Source: an uncultured Opitutia bacterium
GTDB lineage: Bacteria; Verrucomicrobiota; Verrucomicrobiia; Opitutales; Opitutaceae
Assembly: GCA_903896015.1 (NCBI GenBank)
Contig: CAITWF010000016.1
Span: 85,392-149,391 of the forward strand
DNA: 64,000 nucleotides
Direction: 5' to 3'
Position numbers and translations under genes: made by a program. Of this stretch, positions 24,543 through 49,698 are shown one piece after another. Under the pieces are notes generated by a model that saw only the letters and a list, made by a program, of their open reading frames with translations, did no database searches and was not told where the DNA came from. Every line of letters starts with the position of its first letter. The first letter of the stretch is position 1.

Positions 24543-24559
24543 CGGAAGAGTTAAACAAC

Positions 24560-25496: not shown

Positions 25497-26030
25497 TTGA
25501 TATTTACGCTCCCCCGTTTCCTCGCGCTCGCCGCCGCGCTCCTCCTCGCGGCGCCGCTGCGCGCGCACGACCCGGCGGAGAGTTGGACCGAGGTCGTCGT
25601 GCACGCCAACGAAATGGAGCTGCTCGTCACGACCGCGCAGGTCAACGCGCTCAAGCTCATCGATCCGACGAACAAGATTCCGGTGCTCACCCAGGAAAAT
25701 TTTTCGCAGCACCGCGCGCGACTGATCGAGGCGGGCGCGTCGCTGTTTACTGTTACTTCGATCAAGGCGCCGATGCGCCCGCGGAAAGTCGAAGTCCAGC
25801 TCACCGAGGAAAACGATGTCGTGTTTACGATCACCTACCCGCGGCCCGCTCCCGGCCTGCTGATCTTCAACGCGGCGTTTCTTAAAAAACTCGGCGAAGG
25901 CTTCGGCGGGATCATCGACGCCAGTGACACCGCCGGCCACCACCTCGGCTGGGACCAAATCTCATGGGAGAACACGTCGCTCGTTGTAATGCTGCCCGCG
26001 CCCGACGCGCCGCCGGCGAAGAAAGACTAA
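25497..26030 (+). CDS. Secreted protein of unknown function, first gene of the pectinolytic run
   Basis: Not recognised. About 177 residues if translation starts at TTG 25497, which gives a signal peptide (LPRFLALAAALLLAAPLRAHDP). No ATG lies close; the nearest in-frame ATGs are far upstream and give an unlikely basic leader. The mature part is an alternation of polar strands (WTEVVVHANEMELLVTTAQ, RKVEVQLTEENDVVFTITY) suggesting a small beta-sandwich. It ends in a Pro/Lys tail (PAPDAPPAKKD). It is 12 bp upstream of the PL26-like gene, so it probably belongs to that transcription unit. The start site is the weakest part of this call. Confidence 0.6.
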   Translation: MIFTLPRFLALAAALLLAAPLRAHDPAESWTEVVVHANEMELLVTTAQVNALKLIDPTNKIPVLTQENFSQHRARLIEAGASLFTVTSIKAPMRPRKVEVQLTEENDVVFTITYPRPAPGLLIFNAAFLKKLGEGFGGIIDASDTAGHHLGWDQISWENTSLVVMLPAPDAPPAKKD

Positions 26031-26042
26031 AGCTCCCGCACC

Positions 26043-28814
26043 ATGAAATTCGCCGCTGCTCTCTTGCTGTTGCCGCTTGCCGCGTTCGCGGCGGCGCCGG
26101 TCACGCTCAACTGGCTCGGCGGCGTCGCGCCCGCAACGCCCTCGGGGGTGAGTTGGGGCGTGCCGTGGCCGAAGGGTGCCGTGCAGCCCAACACCGTTAT
26201 GCATCTGGCGACTGCCAACGGACGTCGCCTCGAGTTGCAGACGTGGCCGCTTGCCTTCTGGCCCGACGGCTCCGTGAAGTGGACAGGCCACGCGTTTGTC
26301 ACACCCTCGGCGCTCGCCGGCCCATTCACGATCACGCCCATGCCCGGCGCCGAGGAAGAGCGCGAGCCGCGCACCGAGATCAAATATTCCGAAGACGCCG
26401 ACGCCTTCACAATCGACACGAGCGCGGTCCGCGCGCGCCTCGCAAAACACGGCACCGCCATGATCGAATCACTGGTCGTTGGCGAGCGCACCGTGGCCCA
26501 AAACGGCAGACTCATCCTCCAACTCGAAGATCGGTCGCGATCCGCCACAAACCGTGTGCTCCGCGAGGAAGATTTTGTGAGCCGCGTGGACTCCGTTTCG
26601 CTCGAACGCTCCGGCCCGATCATTGCCGTCGTCAAAATTACCGGCACGCACCAGTCACTCAACAGCGCGCGGACCCTGCTGCCCTTCGTCGTCCGACTCA
26701 CATTTTTTGCGGGCAGCGGTGAGATCAATCTCACGCACACCTTCATCTTCGATGGAGAAGCCGAGAAGGATTTTATCAAGGGCCTCGGTCTTTCGTTCGC
26801 CGTGCCGTTCAAGGAGGAGCTGCAAAATCGCCACCTTCGTTTCAGTGGCGACGCCGATGGCATCTGGGTGCAGCCCGTGCGCATGCTGCCGGGCTATCGT
26901 TCGCAGACCGGCCAGCAAATTGGCGAGCTCTACGGCGATCACCTCGGCGGCCAGCGCATCCCGAATCTCGCCGACCTCGCACCGCAGGCGCGCAACGCGT
27001 TGCTCACCGTGCCGATTTGGTCCGACGCACGGCTCGTCCAAGCCGGGCCGAATAACTGGACGCTGGAGAAACGCACCGCCACGCCGGGCTCTTCCTGGTT
27101 GCACGTGACCGATGGACATCGCGCGCGCGGCCTCGCGGTGCTCGCCGACGTCTCCGGCGGACTCGCGGTGGGCGTGAAGGATTTCTGGCAGAAGGCGCCC
27201 GCGTCGTTCGAGATCACGGGTGGCGCATCCGCCGTCGGCGAATTGAAAGTGTGGCTCTGGTCGCCCGAGGCCGCCGCGATGGATTTGCGGCGCTACGACG
27301 ACATCGCGCACGGGCTCTCGGTGAACTACGAGGACTGGAAACCCGGCTGGGGCACGCCCTACGGCATCGCCAACACTCACGATCTCACGCTGCGAGCGTT
27401 CGGCGCGATCCCGCCGGATGATCAACTCGTCGCCCTCTCGCGCGCCAGCGCCGAGCCCCCGGTGCTCGTCTGCACGCCGGAATATTATCACGCGCAGCAG
27501 GCGCTCGGCCGCTGGAGCCTGCCCGACCGCTCCACGCCCGCGCTGCGCTGGGTCGAGGATCAGGTGGACACGTTCGTGAATTACTACCGCGATCAGGTCG
27601 ACGAGCGCTCGTGGTATGGTTTTTGGAATTTTGGCGACATCATGCACAACTACGATTTCGGCCGCCACGAATGGCGCTACGATGTCGGCGGCTGGGCGTG
27701 GGCCAACACCGAGCTGATGCCCGACATGCTGCTCTGGTATACGTTTCTGCGCACGGGCCGCGCCGATATTTTCCGCATGGCCGAGGCCATGACCCGTCAC
27801 ACGAGCGAGGTGGACAACTACCATATCGGACCGTTCTTCCCGCTGGGCTCGCGGCACAACGTCAACCATTGGGGCGACGGCTCGAAGCAACCGCGCGAGA
27901 GTCACGCGGGGCTCAAGCGCCAGTATTATTTTCTTTCCGGCGGCGACGGCCGGCTCGGCGATCTTTTGCACGACCAAATCGACGCCGATCTCACCTACGA
28001 TTACGTCTCGCAGTTCAACGCCTCGCACTACGTGCCCAACGCGGATGGCACGCCGCGGCTGGATGTTCCCACCGGCGGCGGTCGCGGTGGTCCGGGCGGT
28101 CGCGGTGGAAAGGCAGCCCCGGCCGCGACGGCCGATGCCTCGCCCTCGCAACCGGGCCGCGGCGCTCGCATCATCCCCGCGCCGCGGCCGGAAAATTTCT
28201 CACCGCGTCCCACGGCCGCCGACCGCAAGCCTTTCACGCGCTTCGGACTCGAGTGGCTGTGCTACGCGCACAACTGGACGACCGAGTGGGAACGCGGTGG
28301 CGATCAATCGTGGCGTGGCCGGGTGGAGACCGACATGAAAGCGATGGCGACCAGCGTCGATGCCGACGGCAAGTTCCCGGGGCGGTATTTCGACGTCATC
28401 TTCGGCGGTCCCGAGAACATGAACGAGATGGAGCCGATGTATGACATCCCCGATTTCTGGAAGGCGTGGGCCAACACGAGCGAGTTCATCGGGCGCGAGG
28501 TCAACGGCGGCCAGATGACCGGCCCGCGCATGCTCGCCTACGCTGCGGAAAAAAAGCACAGCGCCGAGCTCGGCCGCCTTGCGTGGGAAAAATTGATCGG
28601 GCCGCCCGGCCAACTTCCCCCGCTCAACCAGCCGAAGCGCGTCACGGGTCCCAACCTCCTCAAGCCGGTCACCGACCCGTCGTTCCTCGGCGCGCCCGTC
28701 GGCTGGCAGCTCCACGGCGTCGCGAGCGTGCAATGGGCGCTCAACGCGATCGAGACGCTGGAGTTCGCGAAGCCGTGGATCGGCGAGTGGGAAAAAGGCT
28801 CCGCCACAAAATGA
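26043..28814 (+). CDS. YetA/PcRGLX-like secreted protein, putative exo-rhamnogalacturonan lyase (PL26 type)
   Basis: 923 residues with a signal peptide (MKFAAALLLLPLAAFAAAP). The N-terminal beta-rich half (residues about 20-430, with WPDGSVKWTGHAFV and GSGEINLTHTFIFDGE) resembles the RIFT-barrel module of PcRGLX/YetA proteins. An aromatic-rich helical half follows (WYGFWNFGDIMHNYDFGRHEWRYD, GPFFPLGSRHNVNHWGDG) like their alpha/alpha barrel. Such enzymes release unsaturated galacturonosyl-rhamnose from rhamnogalacturonan ends. A Gly/Arg/Pro-rich insert lies at residues about 678-725 (GGGRGGPGGRGG). Its stop overlaps the next start (ATGA at 28811). Family is likely; activity is inferred. Confidence 0.75.
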   Translation: MKFAAALLLLPLAAFAAAPVTLNWLGGVAPATPSGVSWGVPWPKGAVQPNTVMHLATANGRRLELQTWPLAFWPDGSVKWTGHAFVTPSALAGPFTITPMPGAEEEREPRTEIKYSEDADAFTIDTSAVRARLAKHGTAMIESLVVGERTVAQNGRLILQLEDRSRSATNRVLREEDFVSRVDSVSLERSGPIIAVVKITGTHQSLNSARTLLPFVVRLTFFAGSGEINLTHTFIFDGEAEKDFIKGLGLSFAVPFKEELQNRHLRFSGDADGIWVQPVRMLPGYRSQTGQQIGELYGDHLGGQRIPNLADLAPQARNALLTVPIWSDARLVQAGPNNWTLEKRTATPGSSWLHVTDGHRARGLAVLADVSGGLAVGVKDFWQKAPASFEITGGASAVGELKVWLWSPEAAAMDLRRYDDIAHGLSVNYEDWKPGWGTPYGIANTHDLTLRAFGAIPPDDQLVALSRASAEPPVLVCTPEYYHAQQALGRWSLPDRSTPALRWVEDQVDTFVNYYRDQVDERSWYGFWNFGDIMHNYDFGRHEWRYDVGGWAWANTELMPDMLLWYTFLRTGRADIFRMAEAMTRHTSEVDNYHIGPFFPLGSRHNVNHWGDGSKQPRESHAGLKRQYYFLSGGDGRLGDLLHDQIDADLTYDYVSQFNASHYVPNADGTPRLDVPTGGGRGGPGGRGGKAAPAATADASPSQPGRGARIIPAPRPENFSPRPTAADRKPFTRFGLEWLCYAHNWTTEWERGGDQSWRGRVETDMKAMATSVDADGKFPGRYFDVIFGGPENMNEMEPMYDIPDFWKAWANTSEFIGREVNGGQMTGPRMLAYAAEKKHSAELGRLAWEKLIGPPGQLPPLNQPKRVTGPNLLKPVTDPSFLGAPVGWQLHGVASVQWALNAIETLEFAKPWIGEWEKGSATK

Positions 28815-29905
28815 AAAGCTTACATCGCCAAATCTTCACGGCAGCCGCGCTGCTCGCGGTACTCGTGACGCGCCTCGCCGCACTCGAACGGCCCGATGTC
28901 ACCTTCAAAATTTTCCAGTTTCCCGCCGACAAGATCCCGCGCATCGATGGCGACGCTTCCGACTGGGCGATCGTGCCGGACAGCTACGCGATCGGAACCG
29001 ATCAGCTCGTCGACGATTCGAGCCGGCACCAAAAATTCGATCCGAAGAATCTCAATGTCCGCGTGAAGGTCGGCTGGGTGAAGGGGCTCAACCGCCTCTA
29101 TTTTCTCTACGAGGCCGACGACAACTACTGGGACTTCTCCCAGCCCGGACTGCACAACGACACCTTCGAGATCGCCGTCGATGGTGACGCCTCCGGCGGT
29201 CCGTTCATCGATCGCTTTCATCCGAACAAGGACGTGATCGGCGACGCCGAAGCGTGGTTTTCATTTCACGGCGTGCACGCCCAGAACTACCACATCTTCA
29301 CGCCGCACGTCGGCAAAGACTGGTGCATGGCCTGGGGCGCGCCCTCGTGGATCAAGGAGCTGCCGTGGGCCAACGCCGCGCAGAAATTCGATTTCAAGCC
29401 CGGCGAATCCGGCCACTACACGCTTGAGTTTTGGATCACACCGTTCGACTACGCGGGCGCGGAGGGCCCGTCGCGCGCCGTCGAGTCCGTGCTTCGCGAA
29501 AACAAAATCATCAGCCTCGCGTGGGCCGTGATCGATTACGATGACGTCAACGCGAAGGGCTCATCCGGCTTCTGGAACCTCTCGCGCAAGCACACGTTTT
29601 ACGGGCAGGCGTCGGAACTGTGCGCGTTCAAACTCATGCCGCTCGAGCCCGAACTCGCGCCCAAGCTGGATGCGCGCTGGACGTTCAAGGTGATCGACAT
29701 GGGCCGCCGGCTCGTAGCGTTCCAAGACGCGTCCGTTGGAAAAATCACCGCGTGGAAATGGGACTTCGGCGACGGCGAGACGTCGACCGAGCAGCACCCG
29801 CTGCACACTTACGCGAAGCCCGGCCAGTACGTCGTCGTGCTCAATGTCGAGAGCTCCGACGGCACTTCGCGACGCGCGAAAATCTGGGACGTCGTCCTCC
29901 GTTAA
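28811..29905 (+). CDS. Secreted carbohydrate-binding (CBM9-like) protein with C-terminal PKD domain
   Basis: 364 residues with a signal peptide (MKSLHRQIFTAAALLAVL). Residues about 25-270 look like a CBM9/DOMON-type sandwich: IDGDASDWAIVPDSY near the start, RLYFLYEADDNYWDF, NDTFEIAVDGDASGG, and GHYTLEFWITPFDY. Residues about 285-364 form a PKD domain with the hallmark WDFGDGETSTEQHPLHTYAKPG. No catalytic motif is recognised, so it probably binds substrate or tethers enzymes. It starts inside the stop codon of the PL26-like gene (ATGA), implying translational coupling. Twelve bases separate its stop from the GH28 start. Confidence 0.75.
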   Translation: MKSLHRQIFTAAALLAVLVTRLAALERPDVTFKIFQFPADKIPRIDGDASDWAIVPDSYAIGTDQLVDDSSRHQKFDPKNLNVRVKVGWVKGLNRLYFLYEADDNYWDFSQPGLHNDTFEIAVDGDASGGPFIDRFHPNKDVIGDAEAWFSFHGVHAQNYHIFTPHVGKDWCMAWGAPSWIKELPWANAAQKFDFKPGESGHYTLEFWITPFDYAGAEGPSRAVESVLRENKIISLAWAVIDYDDVNAKGSSGFWNLSRKHTFYGQASELCAFKLMPLEPELAPKLDARWTFKVIDMGRRLVAFQDASVGKITAWKWDFGDGETSTEQHPLHTYAKPGQYVVVLNVESSDGTSRRAKIWDVVLR

Positions 29906-29916
29906 TTCCCATTCGC

Positions 29917-31665
29917 ATGAAATACCCCGCCACCCTGCTCGCTCTCTGGATCGCAAGCACCCTCCCCGCCGCCGACTTTGACGTCCGAACATTCGGCGCC
30001 ACGGGCGACGGCAAAACCATCGACACCGCCGCCATCAACCAAGCGATCGACGCCGCCAGTGCCGCGGGCGGTGGCACCGTGCGTTTCCCGGCGGGCACCT
30101 ACCTGAGTTTTTCGATCCATCTGAAAAGCCGCATCACCCTGCTACTCGATGCCGGCTGCACGATCGTCGCGGCGACGCCCGCGACCGGCGGTGGTACCTA
30201 CGATCCCGCCGAGCCGAACGAATGGGGCGACAAACAATACCAAGATTTCGGCCACAGTCATTGGCACGACAGCCTGATCTGGGGTGAAAATCTAGAGGAC
30301 GTTTCGATCACCGGCGGCGGACGGATTTTCGGCAAGGGTCTCGTGCGCGGTGGGGGTGGTGGGGGCGGCCGAGGCGGTCGCGGTCCCCAAGGTCCAAATG
30401 GAACAATCGCTCCCGGCGAGGCGGTCGCCACGGCTCCCGCCACGGCAACTCCCACTCCAGCTCGCGGCCCGCAAACTCCTCCTCCCGCCGGGCGTGGCGG
30501 TGGCGGCGGATTCGGCGGCGGCCCCGGCTCCGGCACCAAATCGATCGCGCTGAAGAATTGCCGCAACGTCACGCTCCGCGATTTCTCGATCCTCCAAGGC
30601 GGATGGTTCGGCATCCTCGCGACCGGCGTCGACAACTTCACGATCGACAATCTCAAAGTCGACACGAACCGCGACGGATTCGACCTCGACAACTGCCGCA
30701 ACCTCCGCATCTCGAATTGCAGTGTCAACGCGCCGAACGACGACGCCATCGTACTGAAAAGTTCCTACGCGCTGGGCGAACTGCGCTCCTGCGAAAACAT
30801 CACAATCGATGGCTGCCAGGTCAGTGGCTGGGATGTCGGTTCGTTCCTCGACGGCACCTACAAGACCACCCAGGACCGTGCGCCCGACCGCGATGGACCG
30901 ACCGGCCGGATCAAGTGCGGCACCGAGTCGAATGGCGGTTTCAAAAATATCGCGATCTCCAATTGCGTTTTCATCCGCAGCCGCGGCCTCGCCCTCGAGA
31001 GCGTCGATGGTGCGCTCATCGAGGACATCGCAATCTCAAACATCACGATGCGCGACCTCTCCAGCTCCGCAATTTTCCTGCGCCTCGGCAACCGCGCCCG
31101 CGGTCCCGAGGGCACTCCGATCGGCGCGCTCCGCCGCGTATCGATCAGCCATTTGGTCGCTTCGGGCGTCGATGCGCGCTACCCGATCATCATCGCCGGC
31201 CTCCCGGGCCACCCAATCGAGGACGTAGCGCTCTCCGACATCCGCGTCGTCTCGCGCGGCGGCCTCTCGCTCGACGACGCAGCCAAGCAGCCCGCCGATC
31301 TCGTGAACACATTTTTTCTCCGCGGCCCCGGCCTCGCCGGCCCGCGCGATCCGTTCGCCCCGCCCGAACAGGAAAAAGGCTATCCCGAGCCGTCGATGTT
31401 CGGGCTCCTGCCCGCCTCCGGGATGTTCGTGCGGCACGCAAAAAATCTCACCGTCGATCAACTCGATGTGAGCTACGCCAAAGAAGACATGCGCCCCGCA
31501 ATCGTTTTGATTGACGTCGAAGGCATCCAGTTCACCAACGGGAAAGCCCAGCGAAGCGCCGGCACACCATTCTTCGCACTGCGCGGGGTGAAGGCTTTCT
31601 CGGCGCAAAATTGCACCGGTCTCGCCAACACCCAGCGCGCGAACACTGAAAACGAATCGCTCTAA
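29917..31665 (+). CDS. Secreted GH28-family polygalacturonase/rhamnogalacturonase-like protein
   Basis: 582 residues with a signal peptide (MKYPATLLALWIASTLPAAD). It begins FDVRTFGATGDGKTIDTAAINQAID, the standard pectinase beta-helix start, and includes a lid-like WGDKQYQDF region. GH28 catalytic elements are NRDGFDLDNC (Asp), NAPNDDAIVLK (Asp-Asp) and GRIKCGTES (the RIK Arg/Lys). The usual GHG histidine motif is not seen; SFLDGTYK occupies that area. A Gly/Arg/Pro/Ala-rich insert (residues about 144-208) sits between the ITGGGRIFG coil and the KNCRNVTLRD coil. It lies 5 bp upstream of the next gene. Confidence 0.85.
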   Translation: MKYPATLLALWIASTLPAADFDVRTFGATGDGKTIDTAAINQAIDAASAAGGGTVRFPAGTYLSFSIHLKSRITLLLDAGCTIVAATPATGGGTYDPAEPNEWGDKQYQDFGHSHWHDSLIWGENLEDVSITGGGRIFGKGLVRGGGGGGGRGGRGPQGPNGTIAPGEAVATAPATATPTPARGPQTPPPAGRGGGGGFGGGPGSGTKSIALKNCRNVTLRDFSILQGGWFGILATGVDNFTIDNLKVDTNRDGFDLDNCRNLRISNCSVNAPNDDAIVLKSSYALGELRSCENITIDGCQVSGWDVGSFLDGTYKTTQDRAPDRDGPTGRIKCGTESNGGFKNIAISNCVFIRSRGLALESVDGALIEDIAISNITMRDLSSSAIFLRLGNRARGPEGTPIGALRRVSISHLVASGVDARYPIIIAGLPGHPIEDVALSDIRVVSRGGLSLDDAAKQPADLVNTFFLRGPGLAGPRDPFAPPEQEKGYPEPSMFGLLPASGMFVRHAKNLTVDQLDVSYAKEDMRPAIVLIDVEGIQFTNGKAQRSAGTPFFALRGVKAFSAQNCTGLANTQRANTENESL

Positions 31666-31670
31666 TCCGC

Positions 31671-32591
31671 ATGAAGCCGTTCACCTCCAGTTTGTTTTTC
31701 GCCGCGGCCTGCATGCAACTCGCCGCGTTTGCCGCAGAGCCGAGCGTCACGTTGAATGTCTGGCCCGGACTCCCGCCCGGCGACAAACCGAACCTCGGCG
31801 AAGAGAAACACGATCCGCAGGAGATGATTCGCGGCGTCGTCACGACCCCGACCATCGCCGTTTATCGGCCGGAAAAGGCGAAGGACAATGGTGCCGCGGT
31901 GCTGATCGCCCCGGGCGGGGGATTTTTCCAGCTCTCGATGGGCCACGAGGGCGCGGACGTGGCGGCGTGGCTCAACACTTTCGGCGTCACTGGCATCGTG
32001 TTGAAGTATCGCATTCCCACCCGCGACGGCGTCGCACGCTCGCTGCCGATGACGCAGGATGCGCAGCGGGCCCTGAGCATCATCCGGTCGAGGGCGGCCG
32101 AATGGGGCCTCGATCCGAAGCGCATCGGCATCTGCGGATTCTCCGCAGGCGGCGAAGTCGCCGTAAATGTGCTGAGCAACCCAACCACGCGACTCTACCC
32201 GCCGATTGATGAAATCGATCGCGCGGAAGTCCGTGCCGATTTCTCGCTCCTGATCTATGCCGGCGGCATTCTGAAGGCCGGCGTGCAACCGCCCGCCCTC
32301 AACGACGGCGTCGTGTTTACGAAGGACACACCGCCCGCGTTTCTCTCCGTCTCGCAAGACGACAAGGGTGCAGAGCAGACAGTCCTGCTCTATCTCGCAT
32401 TCAAGCGTGCGGGCGTGCCCGCCGAGATGCATGTGTGGGGCGAGGGCGGCCACGGTTATGGCATTCGCCCGGGCACTGCACCGCACACAACATGGCCCGC
32501 GCGGGCGGCCGACTGGCTGAACGCACGCGGCCTGCTCAAACCCGCCGTCCCTTCTTCCGAAAAATCGGCCAACCCTCCGACCTCGCCGTGA
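31671..32591 (+). CDS. Secreted alpha/beta-hydrolase, acetyl-esterase-like
   Basis: 306 residues with a signal peptide (MKPFTSSLFFAAACMQLAAFAAE). The HGG-type oxyanion element is LIAPGGGFFQLS. The nucleophile elbow is GFSAGGEVA with Ser158, and a late histidine lies in WGEGGHGYGI. The start VTLNVWPGLPPGD matches the bacterial dienelactone-hydrolase/xylan-esterase-like group often found in polysaccharide clusters. Likely removes acetyl or similar esters from the glycan. It starts 5 bp after GH28, and its TGA overlaps the GTG start of the first fucosidase. Confidence 0.85.
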   Translation: MKPFTSSLFFAAACMQLAAFAAEPSVTLNVWPGLPPGDKPNLGEEKHDPQEMIRGVVTTPTIAVYRPEKAKDNGAAVLIAPGGGFFQLSMGHEGADVAAWLNTFGVTGIVLKYRIPTRDGVARSLPMTQDAQRALSIIRSRAAEWGLDPKRIGICGFSAGGEVAVNVLSNPTTRLYPPIDEIDRAEVRADFSLLIYAGGILKAGVQPPALNDGVVFTKDTPPAFLSVSQDDKGAEQTVLLYLAFKRAGVPAEMHVWGEGGHGYGIRPGTAPHTTWPARAADWLNARGLLKPAVPSSEKSANPPTSP

Positions 32592-34201
32592 GCCTGAAAC
32601 GTTTCGCTTCCATCGCGCTCGCGACCGCGTCGCTCCGCGCGCAACCGGCGCCGCCGCCGAACCCCATCGCCGACGGCGGAAATTCGGACGGCTTCGACAT
32701 GGCGCCCGAGACGCGCCTCGAAGTCGTTGAAGCCGCCAATGCGAAAATCAAAACGCCGCTGCCACCGGGACCGTTCGCGCCGACGTGGGAATCGTTAAAA
32801 AAACATTACCGCGTGCCCGCGTGGCTCGACGAGGCGAAGTTCGGGCTCTCGATTCACTGGGGCCTCTACGCCGTGCCCGCCTACCACAATGAGTGGTATG
32901 AAAAACACATGTATGCCCAGTTCCGCGCGTGGCACGCCGAGCACTTCGGCCCGCCCGACAAATTCGGCTACAAGGATTTCATCTCGCTCTTCCGGGCCGA
33001 GAAATTTGATCCGGAGGCGTGGGCGGAGTTGTTCAAGAAATCCGGCGCGCGCTTCGTCGCGCCCACCGTGCAACACCACGACAACTTTGCGCTCTGGGAC
33101 AGCAAGGTCACGCCTTTCAATTCCATGGCGATGGGCCCGCACCGCGATCTCATGGGTGAACTCGCCAAGGCAATCCGCGCGCGCGGACTGAAGTTCGGTA
33201 TTTCGAATCACGGCATCGAAAATTTCCAATTCATCAACCCGCCAAAGGATCTCGCAGACGATCTGCGCGCGAAGCACGCCGACCTCTTCGATCCGCAGTG
33301 GGCGGATTTCTACAACTACGCCGACCGCAGCGACGCCGCTTGCGAAAAATTCCTGATCAACTGGTGGGACCGCAACATCGAGCTGATCGAGAATTTCCAG
33401 CCCGACCTGCTGTGGTTCGACAACGGCATCGACCAGCGCTACCTCGATCCACTCAAGCTCCGCATCGCCGCCTACTATTACAACCGCGCGATCGCTTGGG
33501 GCAGAGATGTCTCGATCACGACGAAAAAAGCGGCGTATTCGCCGACCAACAAAAACAGCCAGACCATCGCCTCGATCATCGATTTCGAAAAAATCGGTTC
33601 ACGTTCGCCCAGCGGCATCCGCACCGGCAACTGGCAGGTCCACGAAACGATCGGCAGTCCCGCGTGGGGCTACACCAACGATCTGAAGGCATTTCCACCC
33701 GGCGTGATTATCGCGCGGCTCGCCGACACCGTGGCGAAAAACGGCTGCTTCTTCCTGAACCTCTCTCCGAAAGCCGACGGCACCATCCCTCAGGATCAGC
33801 AGGACACGCTGCTGGCGGTCGGCCGCTGGCTCGACGTGAACGGCGAGGCGATCTACGGCACGCACAACTGGGCAACATTCGGCGTCGGCGGTGGCCGCGG
33901 CGAAAAAGGCCTGCACGTGCGCTTCACGGTGAAAGGCGACGCGCTCTATGCGATCGTGATCGGCATGTGGCCTGCGGGCGAAGTGAACCTCACGCCGATC
34001 GCTGCTCCGCTGTCTCTCGAAGGAAAAATCACGCGCGTGACGATGCTCGGCGCTCCAGACAAACTCGGCTTCGAGCAACGCGCGGACGGGCTGCACATCA
34101 AGCTACCCGCCGCCGCGCCGTGCGAGGACGCCTTCGTCTTCAAAATCAACGGCCTCAAAATGAACCCGCCGACCGCCACTCCCGACGGCAACCCGCTCTA
34201 A
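32588..34201 (+). CDS. Secreted GH29 alpha-L-fucosidase, subtype A (first copy)
   Basis: 537 residues starting at GTG 32588, overlapping the previous stop (GTGA), with a short signal peptide (LKRFASIALATASLRAQ). The GH29 barrel is clear: WLDEAKFGLSIHWGLYAVPAYHNEWY, EHFGPPDKFGYKDF, APTVQHHDNFALWDS, and the nucleophile strand PDLLWFDNG with Asp278. NGCFFLNLSPKADGTIPQDQQ is the conserved late barrel segment. A C-terminal beta-sandwich follows. It resembles the GH29 at 41069-42784 far more than the other two. Cleaves terminal alpha-L-fucose; linkage preference is not readable. Confidence 0.92.
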   Translation: MSLKRFASIALATASLRAQPAPPPNPIADGGNSDGFDMAPETRLEVVEAANAKIKTPLPPGPFAPTWESLKKHYRVPAWLDEAKFGLSIHWGLYAVPAYHNEWYEKHMYAQFRAWHAEHFGPPDKFGYKDFISLFRAEKFDPEAWAELFKKSGARFVAPTVQHHDNFALWDSKVTPFNSMAMGPHRDLMGELAKAIRARGLKFGISNHGIENFQFINPPKDLADDLRAKHADLFDPQWADFYNYADRSDAACEKFLINWWDRNIELIENFQPDLLWFDNGIDQRYLDPLKLRIAAYYYNRAIAWGRDVSITTKKAAYSPTNKNSQTIASIIDFEKIGSRSPSGIRTGNWQVHETIGSPAWGYTNDLKAFPPGVIIARLADTVAKNGCFFLNLSPKADGTIPQDQQDTLLAVGRWLDVNGEAIYGTHNWATFGVGGGRGEKGLHVRFTVKGDALYAIVIGMWPAGEVNLTPIAAPLSLEGKITRVTMLGAPDKLGFEQRADGLHIKLPAAAPCEDAFVFKINGLKMNPPTATPDGNPL

Positions 34202-34214
34202 GATTTCTTTTCCT

Positions 34215-35852: not shown

Positions 35853-35872
35853 GCCGCTCGCCGGCCGCTTGC

Positions 35873-38616: not shown

Positions 38617-38622
38617 TTCGCG

Positions 38623-41042: not shown

Positions 41043-41068
41043 CGCTCGACGCGGGCGCGACCCCTCTG

Positions 41069-42784
41069 ATGCAAACCTCCGTTCGTCTCCTTGCACTGGC
41101 CACTGGTCTCTGGTTGCTGGCCACCGGCGGCATGACGGGGCAACCCGCTTTCCCCGTCGCACAGTCGGCCGCTCCCGGCGCCGCCGAAGAGCCCGCGGTC
41201 GCCGGACCGGTCGCCGCCCCCAAGGCCGGCTCGCGCCCGCCCCGCGACACGCCCGAAATGGTCAGCGCCGCGCTCAAGGACATTCCGCTTCCGCCCCCGG
41301 GCCCGTTCGGAGAATCATGGGAAGCGATCGAAGAAAACTACCGCGACCCCACGTGGTTTCGCGACGGCAAATTCGGCATCATGATGCACTGGGGCATCTA
41401 CTCCGTGCCGGCGCACGGCAGCGAGTGGTATGTCCGCTACATGTATGGCGGCAACGTGCTCGCGGGCGACGGCGGCGGCAACGCCGCGATCGTTAAGTGG
41501 CACACGGAACACTTCGGACCGCCGACGAAATTCGGCTACAAGGATTTTCTCCCGCTGTTCACCGCCGCGAAGTGGGATCCCGATGCGTGGGCCGCGCTCT
41601 TCAAGAAGGCCGGCGCCAAATACGTGCTCGCCCCCGGTGAGCATCACGACGGGTTTTCCAACTGGGACAGTGCGATCAATCCCTACAACGCGAAAAATTA
41701 CGGGCCGCACCACGACCTCGACGGCGAACTGATTCAGGCGATTGAAAAAGTCGGGCTCAAGACCGGCATCTCCGATCATTCGAGCTTCCACTTCGTCTTC
41801 ATCCCGGCGCTGCCCGGCAGCGACCAATACGACCCAAAGTGGGCCGCGTTCTACAGCGTCGCCGACCGGAGCGAAGCGGCCCGCATCAAATTTATGCACG
41901 ACTGGGTGGCGAAGCGGATCGAGACGATCGAAAAATACCGGCCCGACATGCTGTGGTTCGATATGAACACCGACCACGCCTGGGACCCGCTGAAGATTCG
42001 TGTCGCCGCCTACTACTTCAACCGCGCCCGGCAGTGGGGCAAGGAGGTGGGCATCAGCGCCAAGCAGGCCGCTTGGGTCAGCGGACAAATCATGGACTAC
42101 GAGCGCGAGGGCCGCGCGCCCATGGAACTCACCGAGTGGGTCTGGCAGCCCGACGATCCGATCACGAACAAGTTCGGCTACGTCGAGGAGCAAAAGCCCT
42201 ACCCCGCCGATCAGTTCGTCTGGAAGATCATCGAGAACGTGAGCAAGAACGGCAACCTCCTACTCAATATCTCACCGCGCGCCGACGGCACCATCCCCCA
42301 GGAACAGCAGGACGTGTTGCTCGCGATCGGCCGCTGGCTCGACGTGAACGGCGAGGCAATCTACTCGACTCGCCCATGGATCAAATATGGGGAGGGCCCC
42401 GCGGCGGAGGCCGCAGCGGACGCGATGATCGCCGCGCGCGCAAAAGGCTTCGCCGGCCGGCTCAACGGCCAGAATCAAGGCAGCACCGCCGTCGCTGGCG
42501 GTGGTCTGCCGCGGAAGGGCTACACCCCACAGGATATCCGTTTCACCCGGCATGGCGATACGCTCTATGCGACCGTGATGAGTTGGCCAGAGAACGAAGC
42601 GGTCATCGCCTCGCTCGCCACCGGCAAGGCCCCAGAGGGAAAAATCCAACGGGTCGAGCTGCTCGGCCACGCCCGCCCACTCCCGTTCACGCAGGACGCC
42701 GCCGGATTGCACGTGAAATTTCCCACCGAGAAGCCGTGCGACTACGCCTACGCGCTCAAAATCACCGGTCTCAGCCTGAAATAA
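41069..42784 (+). CDS. Secreted GH29 alpha-L-fucosidase, subtype A (second copy)
   Basis: 571 residues with a signal peptide and a low-complexity Ala/Pro-rich linker (residues about 25-70). The barrel includes RDGKFGIMMHWGIYSVPAHG, EHFGPPTKFGYKDFLPLF, APGEHHDGFSNWDS, and the nucleophile strand PDMLWFDMNTD with Asp298. NGNLLLNISPRADGTIPQEQQ is the conserved late segment. Compared with the first subtype-A copy it carries an extra Ala/Gly-rich loop at residues about 450-485. Close ties to the 32588 gene suggest an old duplication. Nine bases separate its stop from the next start. Confidence 0.92.
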   Translation: MQTSVRLLALATGLWLLATGGMTGQPAFPVAQSAAPGAAEEPAVAGPVAAPKAGSRPPRDTPEMVSAALKDIPLPPPGPFGESWEAIEENYRDPTWFRDGKFGIMMHWGIYSVPAHGSEWYVRYMYGGNVLAGDGGGNAAIVKWHTEHFGPPTKFGYKDFLPLFTAAKWDPDAWAALFKKAGAKYVLAPGEHHDGFSNWDSAINPYNAKNYGPHHDLDGELIQAIEKVGLKTGISDHSSFHFVFIPALPGSDQYDPKWAAFYSVADRSEAARIKFMHDWVAKRIETIEKYRPDMLWFDMNTDHAWDPLKIRVAAYYFNRARQWGKEVGISAKQAAWVSGQIMDYEREGRAPMELTEWVWQPDDPITNKFGYVEEQKPYPADQFVWKIIENVSKNGNLLLNISPRADGTIPQEQQDVLLAIGRWLDVNGEAIYSTRPWIKYGEGPAAEAAADAMIAARAKGFAGRLNGQNQGSTAVAGGGLPRKGYTPQDIRFTRHGDTLYATVMSWPENEAVIASLATGKAPEGKIQRVELLGHARPLPFTQDAAGLHVKFPTEKPCDYAYALKITGLSLK

Positions 42785-42792
42785 TCCGCCCG

Positions 42793-44295
42793 ATGAAAGC
42801 GCCGATCAAAAAAATATTTCTGTCCGTTGCCAGCGGGTGCGCGCTTGCGACGTTCGCCGCGTCTGCGCTGGCCCAAACCGCCGCCTTACCGCCTGCGTTG
42901 AAGCCGCCTCCGCCGGGCGCGTTCAGCAACGCGAGCCCGATCCTCTTCCGCGAAGGCGGCGCAGGATTGCCGCCGTATCCCGTGGTCGTCCGCGAGGAGA
43001 CACCGCCCGCGAAGGCCGCGCGGATGAAATGGTTTCACGACGCGCGCTTCGGGATTTTCATCCACTGGGGCGTCTACGCGGTACCGGCCAAGGGCGAATG
43101 GTATATGAGCAACGCCAAGGTGCCGCAGGCAACCTACCGCGCGTTTGCCAGGGATTTCACCGCCGCGAACTATGATCCGGCGGCGTGGGCCGCGCTCTTC
43201 GAAGAAGCCGGCGCAAAATACGTGGTCATCACCGCGAAGCACCACGACGGTTTCGCGCTATATGGCTCGAAGGTTTCCGATTGGAACGCCGTGAAAGTCG
43301 CCGCGGCGCAGCGCGATTTGTTGCAACCGCTCGCCGACGCCGTCCGCGCGCGCGGCATCAAGTTCGGACTCTATTACTCGCAGTCGCAGGACTGGAATAA
43401 TCCCGGCGGCGGCACCGGCAACCGCCCGGCTTGGGACGATGAGCAGAAGAAAGGTTCGTTCGATGACTACATCACGAAGATCGCCGTGCCGCAGGTGCGC
43501 GAGCTGCTTGAAAAATATCACCCCGCCTATCTTTTCTGGGACACCGAGTATGCGATGTCGCCGGAGCGGGCGCGGCCGTTTTTCGACGCGATCAGCGACT
43601 ATCCCGAGCTCATCGCCAACAACCGTCTCGGCGGCGGCGTCCTCGGCGACACCGCCACGCCGGAGCAGCGTATCGCCTTGGACGCCCTCGGCCGCCAGTT
43701 CGAAGTCTGCATGACGATCAATCGCTCGTGGGGCTACAACGCGACCGATCTCGAGTGGAAGTCCGCGCAGCAGCTCATCCGCAATCTCTCCGATATCACG
43801 AGCAGAGGCGGCAACTATCTCCTCAACGTCGGCCCCGACGCCGAGGGCATTATCCCCGAGCCCGAGGTCGAGCGCCTGAAAGCGATGGGCCGCTGGTTGA
43901 AGACGAACGGCGCCGCGATCTACGGCACCGAGGCCGGCCCGTATGCGAAGCCGCCCGAGTGGGGTCGCGTGACGCAGCGTTTCAACGCGAACGGTAGTTC
44001 GACTGTTTACGTCCATGTCTGGAACTGGCCCGCCAACGGCAAGATCGTCCTCCCCCGCGTGCAAGTCGCCGCTGTCTCCGGCAAACTCCTCGCCAACGGC
44101 GCCGCGGTGTCGTCCGCGGTTTCGCCCACGGGCTTGATCGTTACGCTCCGCGGCAGCGCGCCAGACGCCGACGTGTCCGTCGCCGCACTCGAGTTTCCCG
44201 CTCCGCTCCATGTCGCCGAAGACGTCATTCATCCGATCGATGCCAGCTCAGGCGGCACGCCGCTCGACCCAAGCGGCGGAAATCCGCCTAAGTAG
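42793..44295 (+). CDS. Secreted GH29 alpha-L-fucosidase, subtype B (second copy)
   Basis: 500 residues with a signal peptide (KKIFLSVASGCALATFAASALAQ). Barrel motifs are RFGIFIHWGVYAVPAKGEWY, VVITAKHHDGFALYGS, LYYSQSQDWNNPG, and the nucleophile strand PAYLFWDTEYA with Asp250. NYLLNVGPDAEGIIPEPE follows. The C-terminal beta-sandwich matches that of the gene at 39591. It is the fourth fucosidase of the run and follows the second subtype-A copy directly, so three GH29 genes stand in a row (B, A, B). Confidence 0.93.
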   Translation: MKAPIKKIFLSVASGCALATFAASALAQTAALPPALKPPPPGAFSNASPILFREGGAGLPPYPVVVREETPPAKAARMKWFHDARFGIFIHWGVYAVPAKGEWYMSNAKVPQATYRAFARDFTAANYDPAAWAALFEEAGAKYVVITAKHHDGFALYGSKVSDWNAVKVAAAQRDLLQPLADAVRARGIKFGLYYSQSQDWNNPGGGTGNRPAWDDEQKKGSFDDYITKIAVPQVRELLEKYHPAYLFWDTEYAMSPERARPFFDAISDYPELIANNRLGGGVLGDTATPEQRIALDALGRQFEVCMTINRSWGYNATDLEWKSAQQLIRNLSDITSRGGNYLLNVGPDAEGIIPEPEVERLKAMGRWLKTNGAAIYGTEAGPYAKPPEWGRVTQRFNANGSSTVYVHVWNWPANGKIVLPRVQVAAVSGKLLANGAAVSSAVSPTGLIVTLRGSAPDADVSVAALEFPAPLHVAEDVIHPIDASSGGTPLDPSGGNPPK

Positions 44296-44319
44296 GGCCC
44301 CACTCTTCTCCGTCCGATC

Positions 44320-45705: not shown

Positions 45706-45863
45706 AAACCAACTCCGTCGCCGACACATTTTGTCTGGGCGCTCTCCCGCTTGCCGCCGTCGCCGTGCCGCAGTCCGCGCGTGGTCGTGCCGTATGCGCA
45801 GGCAGAAGCTCGCCGTGCCCAAACCCATCACAGTCGCCTTCGGATAATAGTTTCACGCACCAA

Positions 45864-47273
45864 ATGAGATCATTCCTCCTTTCACTCGCATTTTTTTGCG
45901 CCGGGCTTGGGACTGCCGTAGCCGCCGAACCCAAACCCTACGTTGTGTCCGACCTTGGCGCCGTGGGCGACGGGCACACGGTCAACACCCGCGCCCTCCA
46001 AGCCGCGATCGATCGTTGCGCGGCGGAGGGCGGCGGCATCCTCGTGATTCCGCAGGGCACCTTCGTGAGCGGTGCGCTCTACTTCAAACCAGGGGTGAAC
46101 CTGCGCGTCGAAAAAGACGCCGTCCTGAAAAGCACGACGGTGATGGCCGACTTCCCGCCCATCTACACCCGCTGGGAAGGCATCGAACGCTATTGGACGT
46201 CGGCGTTTCTAAACTTCATCGGCCTGAAAAATGTCGAGGTCACCGGCGAAGGCACAATCGATGGCTCGGGCGACGCGTGGGCCGGTTTCGGCGAGCGTAC
46301 ACGGCCGGCGGGTGGTGCGTCACGTGGCCCGCGACCCGCCGCCGATCCAATCTTGTCCGCACCCGTTCCGACCGTGCGCGAGGTTTACGGTGCGGCCCCG
46401 CCTACGACCGGGACACTGGGCCTCGCGCCCGATCCGGCGAAGCTGCCCGCGATCAACGCCGCCGGCCTCGTGCTGCCCCGCGCCGGCGCGCTGAGCCCGC
46501 CCCGCGCGCTCGTGTTTCAAAACTGCACCGGTGTGCGCGTTTCCGGGCTCACGCTGAAAAACCAAGCGCGCTGGGGCTACGTCTTCCTTTATTGCGAAAA
46601 TGTCGTCGCCGAAAACCTCATCGCGCGCGCCGAGCATTACATCCCGAGTTCCGACAGCATGGACGTCGATTCCTGCCGGCACGTGCTCATCACCGGCTGC
46701 GACTTTGACTGCAACGACGACTGCATCTCGATCAAGTCGGGCAAGGACGATGACGGGCGGCGCGTCGGCCTTCCCTGTGACGACCTCGTCATCGAGAAGA
46801 CGCGCTTCGCCTATGGCCACGGCGGCGCGTCGATGGGTAGCGAGACCTCCGGCGACATCCGCAATGTCGAAGTGCGCGATTGCGTCGGCGAAGCCGGCAA
46901 CTGGGCGCCCATTCGATTCAAGACTCAGCCAAGCCGCGGCGGGATCGTGGAAAACATCACCTACCGCAACGTCGAGCTGCGCGGCGTGAAACAAGCATTC
47001 GAATTCGATCTTGAGTGGAACATGCGCATAAACACCGCCGGCGATGCGCGCATGCCGCCCATCGTGCGCAACGTGAAACTCATTAACGTCCATGGCACCG
47101 CGTCGTCGGTCGGGCGAATCCACGGCCTGAGGGACAGTTTCATCGACGGCGTCGTATTTGAAAACTGCGCGATCACGGCACAACACGGACTCGTCATCGA
47201 CAACGCGCGTAACGTCGACACCACCGGCCTCGCGCTGCAAGTCGCCGAGGGCGAGGCGATCATCCGGAAATAG
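45864..47273 (+). CDS. Secreted GH28-family polygalacturonase
   Basis: 469 residues from ATG 45864, which begins a textbook signal peptide (MRSFLLSLAFFCAGLGTAVA). The beta-helix opens VVSDLGAVGDGHTVNTRALQAAID. GH28 catalytic elements are SSDSMDVDSC (Asp), DCNDDCISIKSG (Asp-Asp) and AYGHGGASMGSE (the GHG histidine), with PIRFKTQ near the usual RIK position. A Pro/Ala/Arg-rich insert (residues about 142-205) sits between GTIDGSGDAW and the next coil, as in the first GH28. The frame is open back to ATG 45702, which would add 54 residues before the signal peptide. It seems the more canonical of the two GH28 enzymes. Confidence 0.9.
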   Translation: MRSFLLSLAFFCAGLGTAVAAEPKPYVVSDLGAVGDGHTVNTRALQAAIDRCAAEGGGILVIPQGTFVSGALYFKPGVNLRVEKDAVLKSTTVMADFPPIYTRWEGIERYWTSAFLNFIGLKNVEVTGEGTIDGSGDAWAGFGERTRPAGGASRGPRPAADPILSAPVPTVREVYGAAPPTTGTLGLAPDPAKLPAINAAGLVLPRAGALSPPRALVFQNCTGVRVSGLTLKNQARWGYVFLYCENVVAENLIARAEHYIPSSDSMDVDSCRHVLITGCDFDCNDDCISIKSGKDDDGRRVGLPCDDLVIEKTRFAYGHGGASMGSETSGDIRNVEVRDCVGEAGNWAPIRFKTQPSRGGIVENITYRNVELRGVKQAFEFDLEWNMRINTAGDARMPPIVRNVKLINVHGTASSVGRIHGLRDSFIDGVVFENCAITAQHGLVIDNARNVDTTGLALQVAEGEAIIRK

Positions 47274-47286
47274 AACCACCTTACAG

Positions 47287-49698
47287 ATGAAAAACCCGTT
47301 CCTCCGCTCCGCACTCGCGCTTGCTCTGTTCGGTGGCGCGCTCACGGCGCTTGCCATGGCACCGAAGCCCGTGCCGCCCCATGCGCGCGAGACGCTCTCG
47401 TTCGATCCGGGCTGGCGTTTTCTGAAGGGCGATGCGCCCGGCGCGGAGCAGTCCACGTTTGCTGACGCCGCGTGGCGCACGCTCGACGTCCCGCACGACT
47501 GGAGCATCGAGGGGCCCTTCGAAGAGAAAGCCCCGACCAGCGGAGCCGGCGCATTCTTGCCGAGCGGTGTCGCGTGGTATCGGAAGCATTTTTCGCTGCC
47601 CGCGCGCGCGGTGGGTCGTCGGGTATTCATCGAATTTGACGGCGTGATGCAGAACAGCGACGTGTGGATCAACGGTCACCTCCTCGGGCACCGGCCCTTT
47701 GGCTACGTGAGTTTTTGCTACGAGCTCACTGACTATCTCAACCTCGGCGACAACGCGACCAATGTGCTCGCCGTACGCACCGATACGTCCTTCCAGCCCG
47801 CCTCACGTTGGTATTCCGGGGCGGGAATTTATCGCCACGTCCGGCTCGTGACGACCAGCCCAGTGCATATCGATCACGACGGAGCCTTCGTTACGACGCC
47901 GAAGATTTTTCAAGGGCTCGCGACGGTTCGAGTGACCGGCAGAGCCGTAAATCAATCGACCACGCCTCGGGATCTGACGTTGGATATCTCCATCATCCGG
48001 CCTGACGGCACGAAGGTCGGATCTGGCTCGTCTGCCACACTGCACGTCGAAGCCGGGCGATCAATCGACCTCATGGCGGAACTGAGCGCGTTCAAAGCCC
48101 AGCTTTGGAGCCCCGAATCGCCCTCGCTTTATCAGGCCGTCGTGCGCTTGCGTTCAGGCAACGAAACCCTCGACGAACGGTCGGAGACTTTCGGCATTCG
48201 CGATGCGCATTTCGAGTCGGCCACTGGCTTTTGGCTGAACGGAAAGAATCTCAAACTCCTCGGAGCCTGCGTGCATCAGGACGGCGGGGCATTCGGCTCT
48301 GCCGTGCCCGTCGCCGTGTGGGAACAGCGCCTGATGGCGCTCCGCGAAATTGGCGTCAATGCCCTCCGCACCGCGCACAACCCGCCCGATCCCTCGTTTC
48401 TCGATCTCTGCGACCGCCTGGGCTTTCTCGTGATGGATGAACTGTTCGACTGCTGGACCGTCGGCAAGCCCGGCCTCGATGGGCAGGCGCTCAAAGACTA
48501 TCACCTCTTTTTCAACGAGTGGTCGGGGACCGATGCGCGCGACACCGTAAAGCGCGACCGCAATCATCCCAGCGTCATCCTCTGGAGTTCCGGCAATGAA
48601 ATCCACGACACCCCGCAGGAGGAGAAAGCAAAGCAGATTCTGGCCGGACTCGTGCAGGTCTTCCACGAAAACGATCCGACGCGACCGGTCACCCAGGCGC
48701 TCTTTCGCCCGAACGTCAGCCACGACTACACCAACGGCCTCGCCGACCTCCTCGACGTGATCGGCACCAACTACCGCGACACCGAACTCATCGCCGCGTG
48801 GCGCGCGAAGCCTGGTCGAAAAATCATCGGCACGGAGCAGCAGCACGATCGGCGCACCTGGCTCACGTTGCGCGACACGCCCGCCGAAGCCGGCCAGTTT
48901 CTCTGGACGGGTGTCGACTACCTCGGCGAATCGCGGCAGTGGCCGACCGTTTCCACCGGCGCCGGCCTAGTCGATCGCACCGGCGCGATCAAGCCGTTGG
49001 GCCGCGAGCGGCAGAGCTGGTGGAGCGAAAAGCCGATGGTTGCCATCGCGCGCCGTGTCGCACCCACGCAGTTTGCCCAGGGCGATCCGGGCTTCGTCCC
49101 GCTCAATCGTCGGCAGGTGCAGTTCGCCGACTGGTCACCCGCCAACCGCGAACCACATGACGAAAACATCGAGGTCTACAGCAACTGCGGGTCCGTCGAG
49201 CTCTTCCTCGATGATCGCTCGCTCGGCGCGCTGCCAATCAATGCCGATGCTTCGCCCCGCGCGTGGAAGGTGCCATTTGCGCCCGGCACGCTGCGGGCTG
49301 TCGCAAAGAACCACGGCCAGACCGTCGCCACCGAGGAACTGCGCACTGCCGGCGCGCCGGCGAAAATCGTGCTCGCGACGAATCGCGCGCGCCTCTCGCT
49401 GAGCTTCGATGATGTCGCGGTCGTCACCGCGCTGATCGTCGACGCGCAGGGCGCGGTTGTGCCGGGAGCGAGTTACGGGATTTCGTTTTCCGTGAAAGGC
49501 CCCGGTGCCGTCGTCGCTGTCGACAACGCCGACGCCGCCAGCCACGAATCGTTTCAAACGAGCGAGCGGCACGCGTTCCAAGGCCGGGCCATAGCGTTCG
49601 TGAAGGCCGGCGCAGCCAGCGGCCAAATCAAGCTCACGGCGTCTGCCCCCGGCCTCACGAGCGGAACGATCGTGCTCGAGGCGAGCAACGCTCGCTAG
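47287..49698 (+). CDS. Secreted GH2-family beta-galactosidase-like enzyme
   Basis: 803 residues with a signal peptide (MKNPFLRSALALALFGGALTALA). The N-terminal jelly-roll domain has LDVPHDWSIEGPF, VAWYRKHFSLP and RVFIEFDGVMQNSDVWINGH. The barrel follows: GACVHQDGGAFGSAVP, ALRTAHNPPDPSFLDLCDRLG, and the acid/base motif LWSSGNEIH with Glu438. The nucleophile is probably Glu517 in IIGTEQQHD. C-terminal beta-domains resemble those of bacterial GH2 beta-galactosidases. It is the last gene of the 24 kb run and would trim galactose side chains, typical of rhamnogalacturonan I; the exact sugar is not certain. Confidence 0.9.
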   Translation: MKNPFLRSALALALFGGALTALAMAPKPVPPHARETLSFDPGWRFLKGDAPGAEQSTFADAAWRTLDVPHDWSIEGPFEEKAPTSGAGAFLPSGVAWYRKHFSLPARAVGRRVFIEFDGVMQNSDVWINGHLLGHRPFGYVSFCYELTDYLNLGDNATNVLAVRTDTSFQPASRWYSGAGIYRHVRLVTTSPVHIDHDGAFVTTPKIFQGLATVRVTGRAVNQSTTPRDLTLDISIIRPDGTKVGSGSSATLHVEAGRSIDLMAELSAFKAQLWSPESPSLYQAVVRLRSGNETLDERSETFGIRDAHFESATGFWLNGKNLKLLGACVHQDGGAFGSAVPVAVWEQRLMALREIGVNALRTAHNPPDPSFLDLCDRLGFLVMDELFDCWTVGKPGLDGQALKDYHLFFNEWSGTDARDTVKRDRNHPSVILWSSGNEIHDTPQEEKAKQILAGLVQVFHENDPTRPVTQALFRPNVSHDYTNGLADLLDVIGTNYRDTELIAAWRAKPGRKIIGTEQQHDRRTWLTLRDTPAEAGQFLWTGVDYLGESRQWPTVSTGAGLVDRTGAIKPLGRERQSWWSEKPMVAIARRVAPTQFAQGDPGFVPLNRRQVQFADWSPANREPHDENIEVYSNCGSVELFLDDRSLGALPINADASPRAWKVPFAPGTLRAVAKNHGQTVATEELRTAGAPAKIVLATNRARLSLSFDDVAVVTALIVDAQGAVVPGASYGISFSVKGPGAVVAVDNADAASHESFQTSERHAFQGRAIAFVKAGAASGQIKLTASAPGLTSGTIVLEASNAR

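What the first reader, a model, noticed from the sequence alone, without database searches (positions are those of the whole stretch)
25497..49698. 24 kb, 16-gene run of exported enzymes that looks like a complete acetylated, fucosylated rhamnogalacturonan degradation system without SusC/SusD
Seen: 16 consecutive same-strand genes, mostly with signal peptides, five start/stop overlaps (ATGA or GTGA), and other gaps mostly under 30 bp. Contents: PL26/YetA-like, 2 GH28, 4 GH29, GH2, 3 CE12 domains, SASA, alpha/beta hydrolase, beta-lactamase fold, ThuA and CBM9/PKD. Known: these families act on rhamnogalacturonan I backbones, acetyl groups, galactan and fucose. Inferred: one transcript from about 25.3-25.5 kb aimed at fucose-rich pectin such as root mucilage. 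No SusC/D pair, transporter, GH105 or rhamnosidase is included, so it does not follow the Bacteroidetes plan.
Basis: partly seen in the sequence, partly recalled or inferred. Interest (0 to 1): 0.75.

Follow-up and report, generated by a model that had tools for sequence, protein, structure and literature searches.

The report
Metal-binding-fold partner of pectin lyases
A bacterium carries a run of 16 genes predicted to break down the pectin rhamnogalacturonan I, and the first of them, which matches no named protein family, encodes a small, likely secreted and likely metal-binding protein whose free-standing relatives lie beside predicted pectin-lyase genes in 39 of 44 places examined, which hints that a metal may play an unrecognised part in pectin digestion.

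Summary
The observation largely holds: 16 same-strand genes, 16 of 16 with signal-peptide-like starts, with PL26, GH28, GH29, GH2 and esterase families. Four of five start/stop overlaps hold. The pectin target is well supported: nine of the 16 genes recur in the same order and chromosomal slot in a same-genus genome, and related loci add PL11 rhamnogalacturonan lyases. 'Complete' is not supported and 'fucosylated' only partly: two of three GH29 proteins tested match an exo-alpha-L-galactosidase best. Lack of SusD is genome-wide (PF07980).

The surprise is gene 1. It has no Pfam family; its model has the fold of copper- or zinc-binding periplasmic domains (Ang-1 of HupE/UreJ-2, ZrgA), with an invariant histidine where the signal peptide ends. 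Its homologues fall into two kinds: fused to a HupE/UreJ permease, beside a PL11 or PL26 gene in 1 of 40 places; without a permease, in 39 of 44, including 6 of 6 from a later search. I read it as a metal-binding accessory of rhamnogalacturonan degradation; metal binding and role are inferred.

The parts
25497..26030 (+). gene 1: small protein with signal-peptide-like start; predicted mature part 25566-26027 begins with an invariant histidine; Ang/ZrgA-like beta-sandwich fold; no permease domain
26043..28814 (+). gene 2: PL26 rhamnogalacturonan lyase family
   Evidence: PF19501, PF21345, PF21346; PcRGLX 5xq3 at 4e-150
28811..29905 (+). gene 3: PKD-domain protein (reader: CBM9/PKD; CBM9 not called)
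   Evidence: PF18911, PF00801; homologues near PL26 or PL11 in several relatives
29917..31665 (+). gene 4: divergent GH28-like beta-helix protein with Gly/Arg-rich insert
   Evidence: PF12708, PF13229, PF00295 33.5 bits
31671..32591 (+). gene 5: alpha/beta hydrolase, likely acetylesterase
   Evidence: PF20434, PF07859; PaeX model 152 bits, under its cut-off of 550
32588..34201 (+). gene 6: GH29, nearest solved relative exo-alpha-L-galactosidase
   Evidence: PF01120, PF16757; 7ljj 1e-91
34215..35852 (+). gene 7: two SGNH stretches (CE12-like)
   Evidence: PF13472 in two stretches; CE12 by resemblance only
35873..37087 (+). gene 8: beta-lactamase-fold protein, likely esterase
   Evidence: PF00144; under the cut-off of each of the 25 best NCBIfam models shown, of 44
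37084..38616 (+). gene 9: SASA-family acetylesterase
   Evidence: PF03629
38623..39594 (+). gene 10: ThuA-domain protein
   Evidence: PF06283
39591..41042 (+). gene 11: GH29
   Evidence: PF01120; best solved match alpha-L-fucosidase 9rzx
41069..42784 (+). gene 12: GH29, nearest solved relative exo-alpha-L-galactosidase
   Evidence: PF01120, PF16757; 7ljj 2e-94
42793..44295 (+). gene 13: GH29
   Evidence: PF01120
44320..45705 (+). gene 14: CE12-like, likely rhamnogalacturonan acetylesterase, with YxiM-type galactose-binding domain
   Evidence: PF13472, PF21254; YxiM 2o14 at 5e-23 and rhamnogalacturonan acetylesterase 1deo at 3e-10
45864..47273 (+). gene 15: canonical GH28
   Evidence: PF00295 110 bits; 5olp, 3jur
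47287..49698 (+). gene 16: GH2 (beta-galactosidase-like)
   Evidence: PF02836, PF02837, PF18565, PF16355
21814..25300 (-). divergent four-gene cassette: sugar isomerase/epimerase-like, SDR, Zn-dehydrogenase, HUMPS-family decarboxylase; found with the locus in a relative
   Evidence: Pfam; the same four genes, same order and strand, follow the locus in G026 (L093); isomerase 92% identical over 293 of 312 residues in L042

Best explanation
The 24-kb run is a gene cluster, conserved in part in a same-genus genome, that is predicted to degrade acetylated rhamnogalacturonan I, and its first gene encodes a likely exported protein with a predicted fold known from copper- and zinc-binding domains, which would bind a transition metal through its N-terminal histidine and likely serves as a metal-handling accessory of the rhamnogalacturonan lyases. 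Shown by sequence: gene order, conservation of the locus and its slot, the fold match of the model, the invariant histidine at the signal-peptide junction, and the linkage of permease-less homologues to PL11 and PL26 genes. Inferred: PL26 (and PL11 in relatives) cuts the backbone; esterases, GH28, GH2 and two kinds of GH29 clear acetyl groups and side sugars (galactose, L-fucose, possibly L-galactose); unlinked GH88/105 and GH78 finish the products; TonB-dependent receptors take them up. Also inferred: gene 1, after loss of its signal peptide, holds Cu(II) (or Ni or Zn) with His1, as Ang-1 does, and captures metal that comes with the polyanionic pectin while it is cut, either to supply it or to keep it off the lyases (PL11 enzymes are calcium-dependent: recalled, from no call).
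For: Locus: Pfam and solved-structure matches. Synteny: in same-genus genome G001 genes 1, 2, 3, 4, 6, 7, 9, 15 and 16 lie in this order, 64-85% identical in tblastn pieces, between a GlnD-kinase-HNH-DEAD helicase block and PurM-PurF-PurL, as in the window. Gene 1: a sequence-only search of 250 family genomes (68 places), then neighbourhoods of 67 of these 68 plus one extra local hit and two, 70 in all: permease-less 33 of 38 within 330 bp of a PL11 or PL26 gene, HupE/UreJ-fused 1 of 32. In the strongest tier (100 bits or more) 21 of 23 genes lie within 250 bp of PL11/PL26 on the same strand, one of the 21 being a fused form. Second sample: 14 of 15 new places from 384 class genomes: permease-less 6 of 6 beside PL11 (21-532 bp), fused 0 of 8. 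Fold: in the alignment with 9gce (Ang-1 with Cu) the first aligned residues are model 25 and chain 2, so H24 would fall at chain residue 1. Ang-1 holds copper through His1, Kd 73.6 nM for Cu(II) (PMC12537917, section 8 part 1). H24 invariant in 29 of 29; in 25 diverse permease-less members only H1 and A28 are invariant (rows were cut to begin at that His).
Against: No metal binding, expression or activity was measured. The second copper ligand of Ang-1 (Asn41) is poorly conserved even there, and none could be assigned in gene 1. The fold matches are distant: rmsd 3.2-4.8 at 10-12% identity for the metal-binding entries; Foldseek TM-scores by model length 0.38-0.54 in the 17 rows at E 0.001 or less. 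The association is not 39 independent events: the tree needs about three changes between fused and permease-less forms, and the second profile was built largely from members beside PL11. Five permease-less members (L142, L144, L149, two in L186) lack a PL11/PL26 neighbour, and one fused form (L139) has one. PL11 matches occur in 91 of 250 family genomes, permease-less homologues in 29 of 250 by my count, so many PL11 genes do without. The window genome has no PL11 over the cut-off.
Confidence: 0.5

Rival explanations
1. The run is an ordinary rhamnogalacturonan locus and gene 1 is a structural or carbohydrate-binding beta-sandwich that has kept its fold and N-terminal histidine without binding metal.
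For: Beta-sandwich folds often bind glycans (general knowledge); apart from H1 and A28 nothing is invariant in 25 diverse members; no second metal ligand is assignable.
Against: The one invariant polar residue is the metal ligand of a nearest solved relative, at the same N-terminal place, across members down to about 20% identity.
Confidence: 0.25
2. Gene 1 is a copper enzyme that attacks or oxidises rhamnogalacturonan itself, or a metallochaperone that loads a lyase.
For: N-terminal histidine as in LPMOs; direct neighbourhood of lyase genes; Cu-loaded Ang-1 has weak oxidase activity and a modest enzymatic role is not fully excluded by its authors (PMC12537917).
Against: Ang-1 showed no substantial oxidase or peroxidase activity relative to LPMOs; no second invariant histidine as in a canonical histidine brace.
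Confidence: 0.15
3. Gene 1 is a leftover of a metal permease that happened to sit in this locus; it is hitchhiking and has no role in pectin use.
For: In L138 and L139 fused Ang-HupE/UreJ proteins sit in loci with PKD and GH28 genes, and they group weakly with the locus clade (84/79).
Against: The linkage is kept through different arrangements: downstream of PL11, between two PL11, between PL11 and PL26, divergent from PL11, and in a second bacterial family; the reading frames stay open with the histidine kept.
Confidence: 0.1

Closest known systems
Anglerases Ang-1/Ang-2 (N-terminal domain of HupE/UreJ-2 permeases; PDB 9GCE)
   Same: beta-sandwich fold, histidine at the predicted mature N-terminus, sequence link: the gene 1 profile finds a HupE/UreJ-2 fusion in the own genome at E 1e-14
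   Different: no permease domain; encoded beside rhamnogalacturonan lyase genes; found here in two families of one class, whereas the paper places Ang-1 particularly in Pseudomonadota
ZrgA (8f1b) and PA4063 (7bgo), zinc-bound in their solved structures
   Different: no match of the gene 1 profile to any solved chain by sequence; their own gene neighbourhoods were not examined
Rhamnogalacturonan utilisation loci of Bacteroidota (SusC/SusD) and of Bacillus subtilis (yes cluster); both recalled
   Same: lyases, acetylesterases, GH28 and beta-galactosidase-type enzymes for rhamnogalacturonan I
   Different: no PF07980 SusD in the genome, no transporter among the 16, signal-peptide-like starts on all 16, four GH29
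Opitutaceae strain MRC-7 pectin genes (PMC12613999, main text part 1 of 2)
   Same: PL26, PL11, GH28, GH105 and GH106 annotated in an Opitutaceae genome
   Different: the text read lists families only, no locus and no accessory protein

Membership tests
Anglerase (Ang domain appended to HupE/UreJ-2 permease) | histidine as first residue after the signal peptide | tested here: met
   A23 H24 invariant in 29 of 29; the cleavage itself is predicted by eye
Anglerase (Ang domain appended to HupE/UreJ-2 permease) | Ig-like beta-sandwich with helices between strands 2 and 3 | tested here: met
   secondary structure of the model and fold matches
Anglerase (Ang domain appended to HupE/UreJ-2 permease) | C-terminal HupE/UreJ-2 permease | tested here: not met
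   gene 1 ends 1 residue after the domain; fused relatives exist
Anglerase (Ang domain appended to HupE/UreJ-2 permease) | transition-metal binding | not testable with these tools
   no assay
Histidine-brace enzyme (LPMO type; definition recalled) | second histidine ligand | tested here: not met
   no other invariant histidine
PL26 | three PcRGLX domains and close match to solved PcRGLX | tested here: met
   the last domain is split by a Gly/Arg-rich insert
PL26 | lyase activity on rhamnogalacturonan I | not testable with these tools
   no assay
SusC/SusD polysaccharide utilisation locus | SusD homologue | tested here: not met
   0 matches of PF07980 in the genome; other SusD models not searched
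GH29 alpha-L-fucosidase | GH29 domain | tested here: met
   4 of 4 by PF01120
GH29 alpha-L-fucosidase | specificity for fucose | tested here: inconclusive
   two of the three run match exo-alpha-L-galactosidase best, one fucosidases; gene 13 not run

The most novel reading that the evidence does not exclude
A whole family of secreted, permease-less anglerase-fold proteins has been recruited as a dedicated copper (or nickel or zinc) partner of rhamnogalacturonan lyases: pectin breakdown in these bacteria has a metal-dependent step, by oxidation or by metal capture, that nobody has looked for.
Probability: 0.3. Interest if true: 0.85.

Novelty: new variant of a known kind. Interest (0 to 1): 0.62.

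Why it matters
The rhamnogalacturonan locus itself is a good but ordinary member of a known kind. The tight linkage of permease-less anglerase-fold proteins to PL11 and PL26 genes, kept through rearrangements and in a second bacterial family, gives a family without a name a testable role. It links transition-metal handling to pectin degradation, a link for which my paper searches found nothing (the anglerase paper's main text has no occurrence of 'pectin' or 'Opitut'). If right, it would bear on pectin-degrading enzyme mixtures and on the ecology of these bacteria.

Tried and rejected
Rejected or unproductive: (1) Promoter and terminator scans, no excess over shuffles. (2) Solved-structure search with the gene 1 profile, no match; Pfam over 29 members, only scattered weak hits, best E 0.0016 in one member. 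(3) Gly/Arg-rich inserts as a locus-specific feature: they recur at the same sites in some relatives' PL26 and GH28 and are absent in others, so they are left as a side note. (4) The idea that every PL11 carries a gene 1 homologue: not borne out. (5) Fisher test of linkage (p about 1.5e-13) is not used as proof, since the rows are related. (6) Paper searches for a link of HupE, anglerase or Opitutaceae with rhamnogalacturonan gave none beyond the anglerase paper and the MRC-7 announcement; only open PMC text is held. Limits of the census: the first look scored at most 14 candidates per genome, and one permease-less gene (G094:C1:2563127) was found only, so presence counts are lower bounds. Rows dropped before the counts: eight duplicate loci (L164-L171), one 58-residue fragment at a contig edge (G216:C85:10542), a 15-bit fragment in L129, and one 24-bit fragment at a contig start (G715:C105, not fetched).
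Full report
What is there. The window is a stretch of contig 16 of a 4.96-Mb genome in 123 contigs, 97.9% complete. I take the family as Opitutaceae: two unnamed relatives share contig lengths and content with records titled uncultured Opitutaceae (385368 bases: L009, L126) and uncultured Opitutae (263081 bases: L016, L073). All 16 products start like signal peptides by a crude test that one of 10 control genes also passes. The GH28-like protein at 29917 is divergent; the one at 45864 is canonical.

The target. PL26 matches the solved PcRGLX protein at 4e-150; gene 14 matches YxiM and a rhamnogalacturonan acetylesterase. In the same-genus genome G001 the locus sits in the same slot (GlnD, GAF kinase, HNH, DEAD helicase on one side; PurM, PurF, PurL on the other). 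There genes 1, 2, 3, 4, 6, 7, 9, 15 and 16, nine of the 16, recur in order at 64-85% identity. HlyD and MacB-type genes, a DUF5597/GH42-like enzyme and a 610-residue protein without a Pfam family lie among them; genes 5, 8 and 10-14 were not found in the stretch. In G001 PL26 is interrupted by stops, by decay or assembly error. In G026 the order is PL11, gene 1 homologue, PL11, gene 1 homologue, PL26, GH43, then GH29 and SGNH, followed by the same four-gene minus-strand cassette as upstream of the window's run (isomerase, SDR, Zn-dehydrogenase, HUMPS), then the purine genes. So the cassette goes with the locus in these two genera and may handle a released sugar; which one is unknown.

Fucose or L-galactose. 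Genes 6 and 12 match exo-alpha-L-galactosidase 7ljj best, with an entry called alpha-L-fucosidase (7snk) a near tie; gene 11 matches fucosidases. A review lists BpGH29 and BT2192 as GH29 enzymes with galactosidase activity (PMC10154630, passages). Flaxseed rhamnogalacturonan is said to contain L-fucose and L-galactose (PMC9368198, passages). I suggest a substrate with both; this is inference.

Transport and completeness. No PF07980 SusD in the genome, 63 TonB plug matches, one such receptor in the window at 12231-15203, absent between GlnD and the kinase in G001. GH88/105: three, GH78: one, on other contigs (GH106 not searched). PL26: three copies. PL11: none over the cut-off. The run alone is not a complete pathway.

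Genome context of gene 1. I searched the family by sequence alone (50 of 250 genomes, 68 places) and took two more places from a phylum search, then fetched the neighbourhoods. One edge fragment was dropped and one extra local hit added, which leaves 70 distinct places. Of 38 without a permease, 32 lie within 300 bp and one more at 330 bp of a PL11 or PL26 gene; of 32 fused to HupE/UreJ, one does (duplicates taken out by hand from its tally of 78). Distances are between aligned domain edges, and PL11/PL26 were called by phmmer at more than 60 bits. Pfam confirmed HupE_UreJ_2 in three of the fused ones. A new profile from 25 diverse permease-less members then found 15 further places in 384 class genomes; of the 14 fetched, 6 of 6 permease-less ones lie beside PL11 and 0 of 8 fused ones do. 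Five of these six come from another bacterial family of the class. That profile was itself built largely from members beside PL11, so the second sample is new but not wholly independent. The arrangement varies (downstream, between, divergent), yet the neighbour stays. The tree puts 30 of 32 fused forms together at 100/100 and needs about three changes of form, so the linkage is old and inherited. In L142 a gene 1 relative that ends in a hydrophobic stretch sits beside a separate HupE gene, and in L138 three HupE/UreJ genes stand in a row in a locus with PKD and GH28 genes, which hints at how permease and domain parted.

How it may work. Inferred chain: esterases and glycosidases strip the polymer, PL26 (PL11 in relatives) cuts it, and gene 1 with His1-bound metal handles transition metal that pectin carries. 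Capture, protection of the lyases, or a chemical role cannot be told apart here. Confidence: rhamnogalacturonan I target 0.85, metal binding by gene 1 about 0.6, the capture role about 0.4; the combined statement 0.5.

Noticed in passing
26043-28814, 29917-31665, 44320-45705, 45864-47273: Gly/Arg/Pro-rich low-complexity stretches (for example GGRGG runs) in several unrelated enzymes of the run; in PL26 and GH28 they sit at the same site in some relatives and are absent in others.
   Followed up: partly
21814-25300, minus strand; L093:2300-5860: Four-gene cassette (isomerase, SDR, Zn-dehydrogenase, HUMPS decarboxylase) that goes with the locus in two genera; perhaps catabolism of a released sugar such as L-galactose or L-fucose.
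   Followed up: partly
12231-15948: TonB-dependent receptor followed by an SGNH hydrolase between GlnD and the GAF kinase; this pair is absent from the same slot in G001.
   Followed up: partly
L016:9199-12603; L073: In the same-genus genome the PL26 gene next to an open gene 1 homologue is interrupted by stops; decay or assembly error.
   Followed up: no
L138:6811-10342: Three HupE/UreJ genes in a row in a locus with PKD and two GH28 genes but no PL11 or PL26 found in the 16 kb fetched.
   Followed up: no
38623-39594: The ThuA-domain protein also has a histidine at the end of its signal-peptide-like start (RA then HETPP); not examined further.
   Followed up: no
L016:12681-15786, L134:3215-7596: HlyD and MacB-type genes lie inside the rhamnogalacturonan loci of some relatives and not among the window's 16.
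   Followed up: no
L143:8401-12196: In the own genome a fused Ang-HupE/UreJ gene is followed by a TonB-dependent receptor, perhaps a metal-uptake pair.
   Followed up: no
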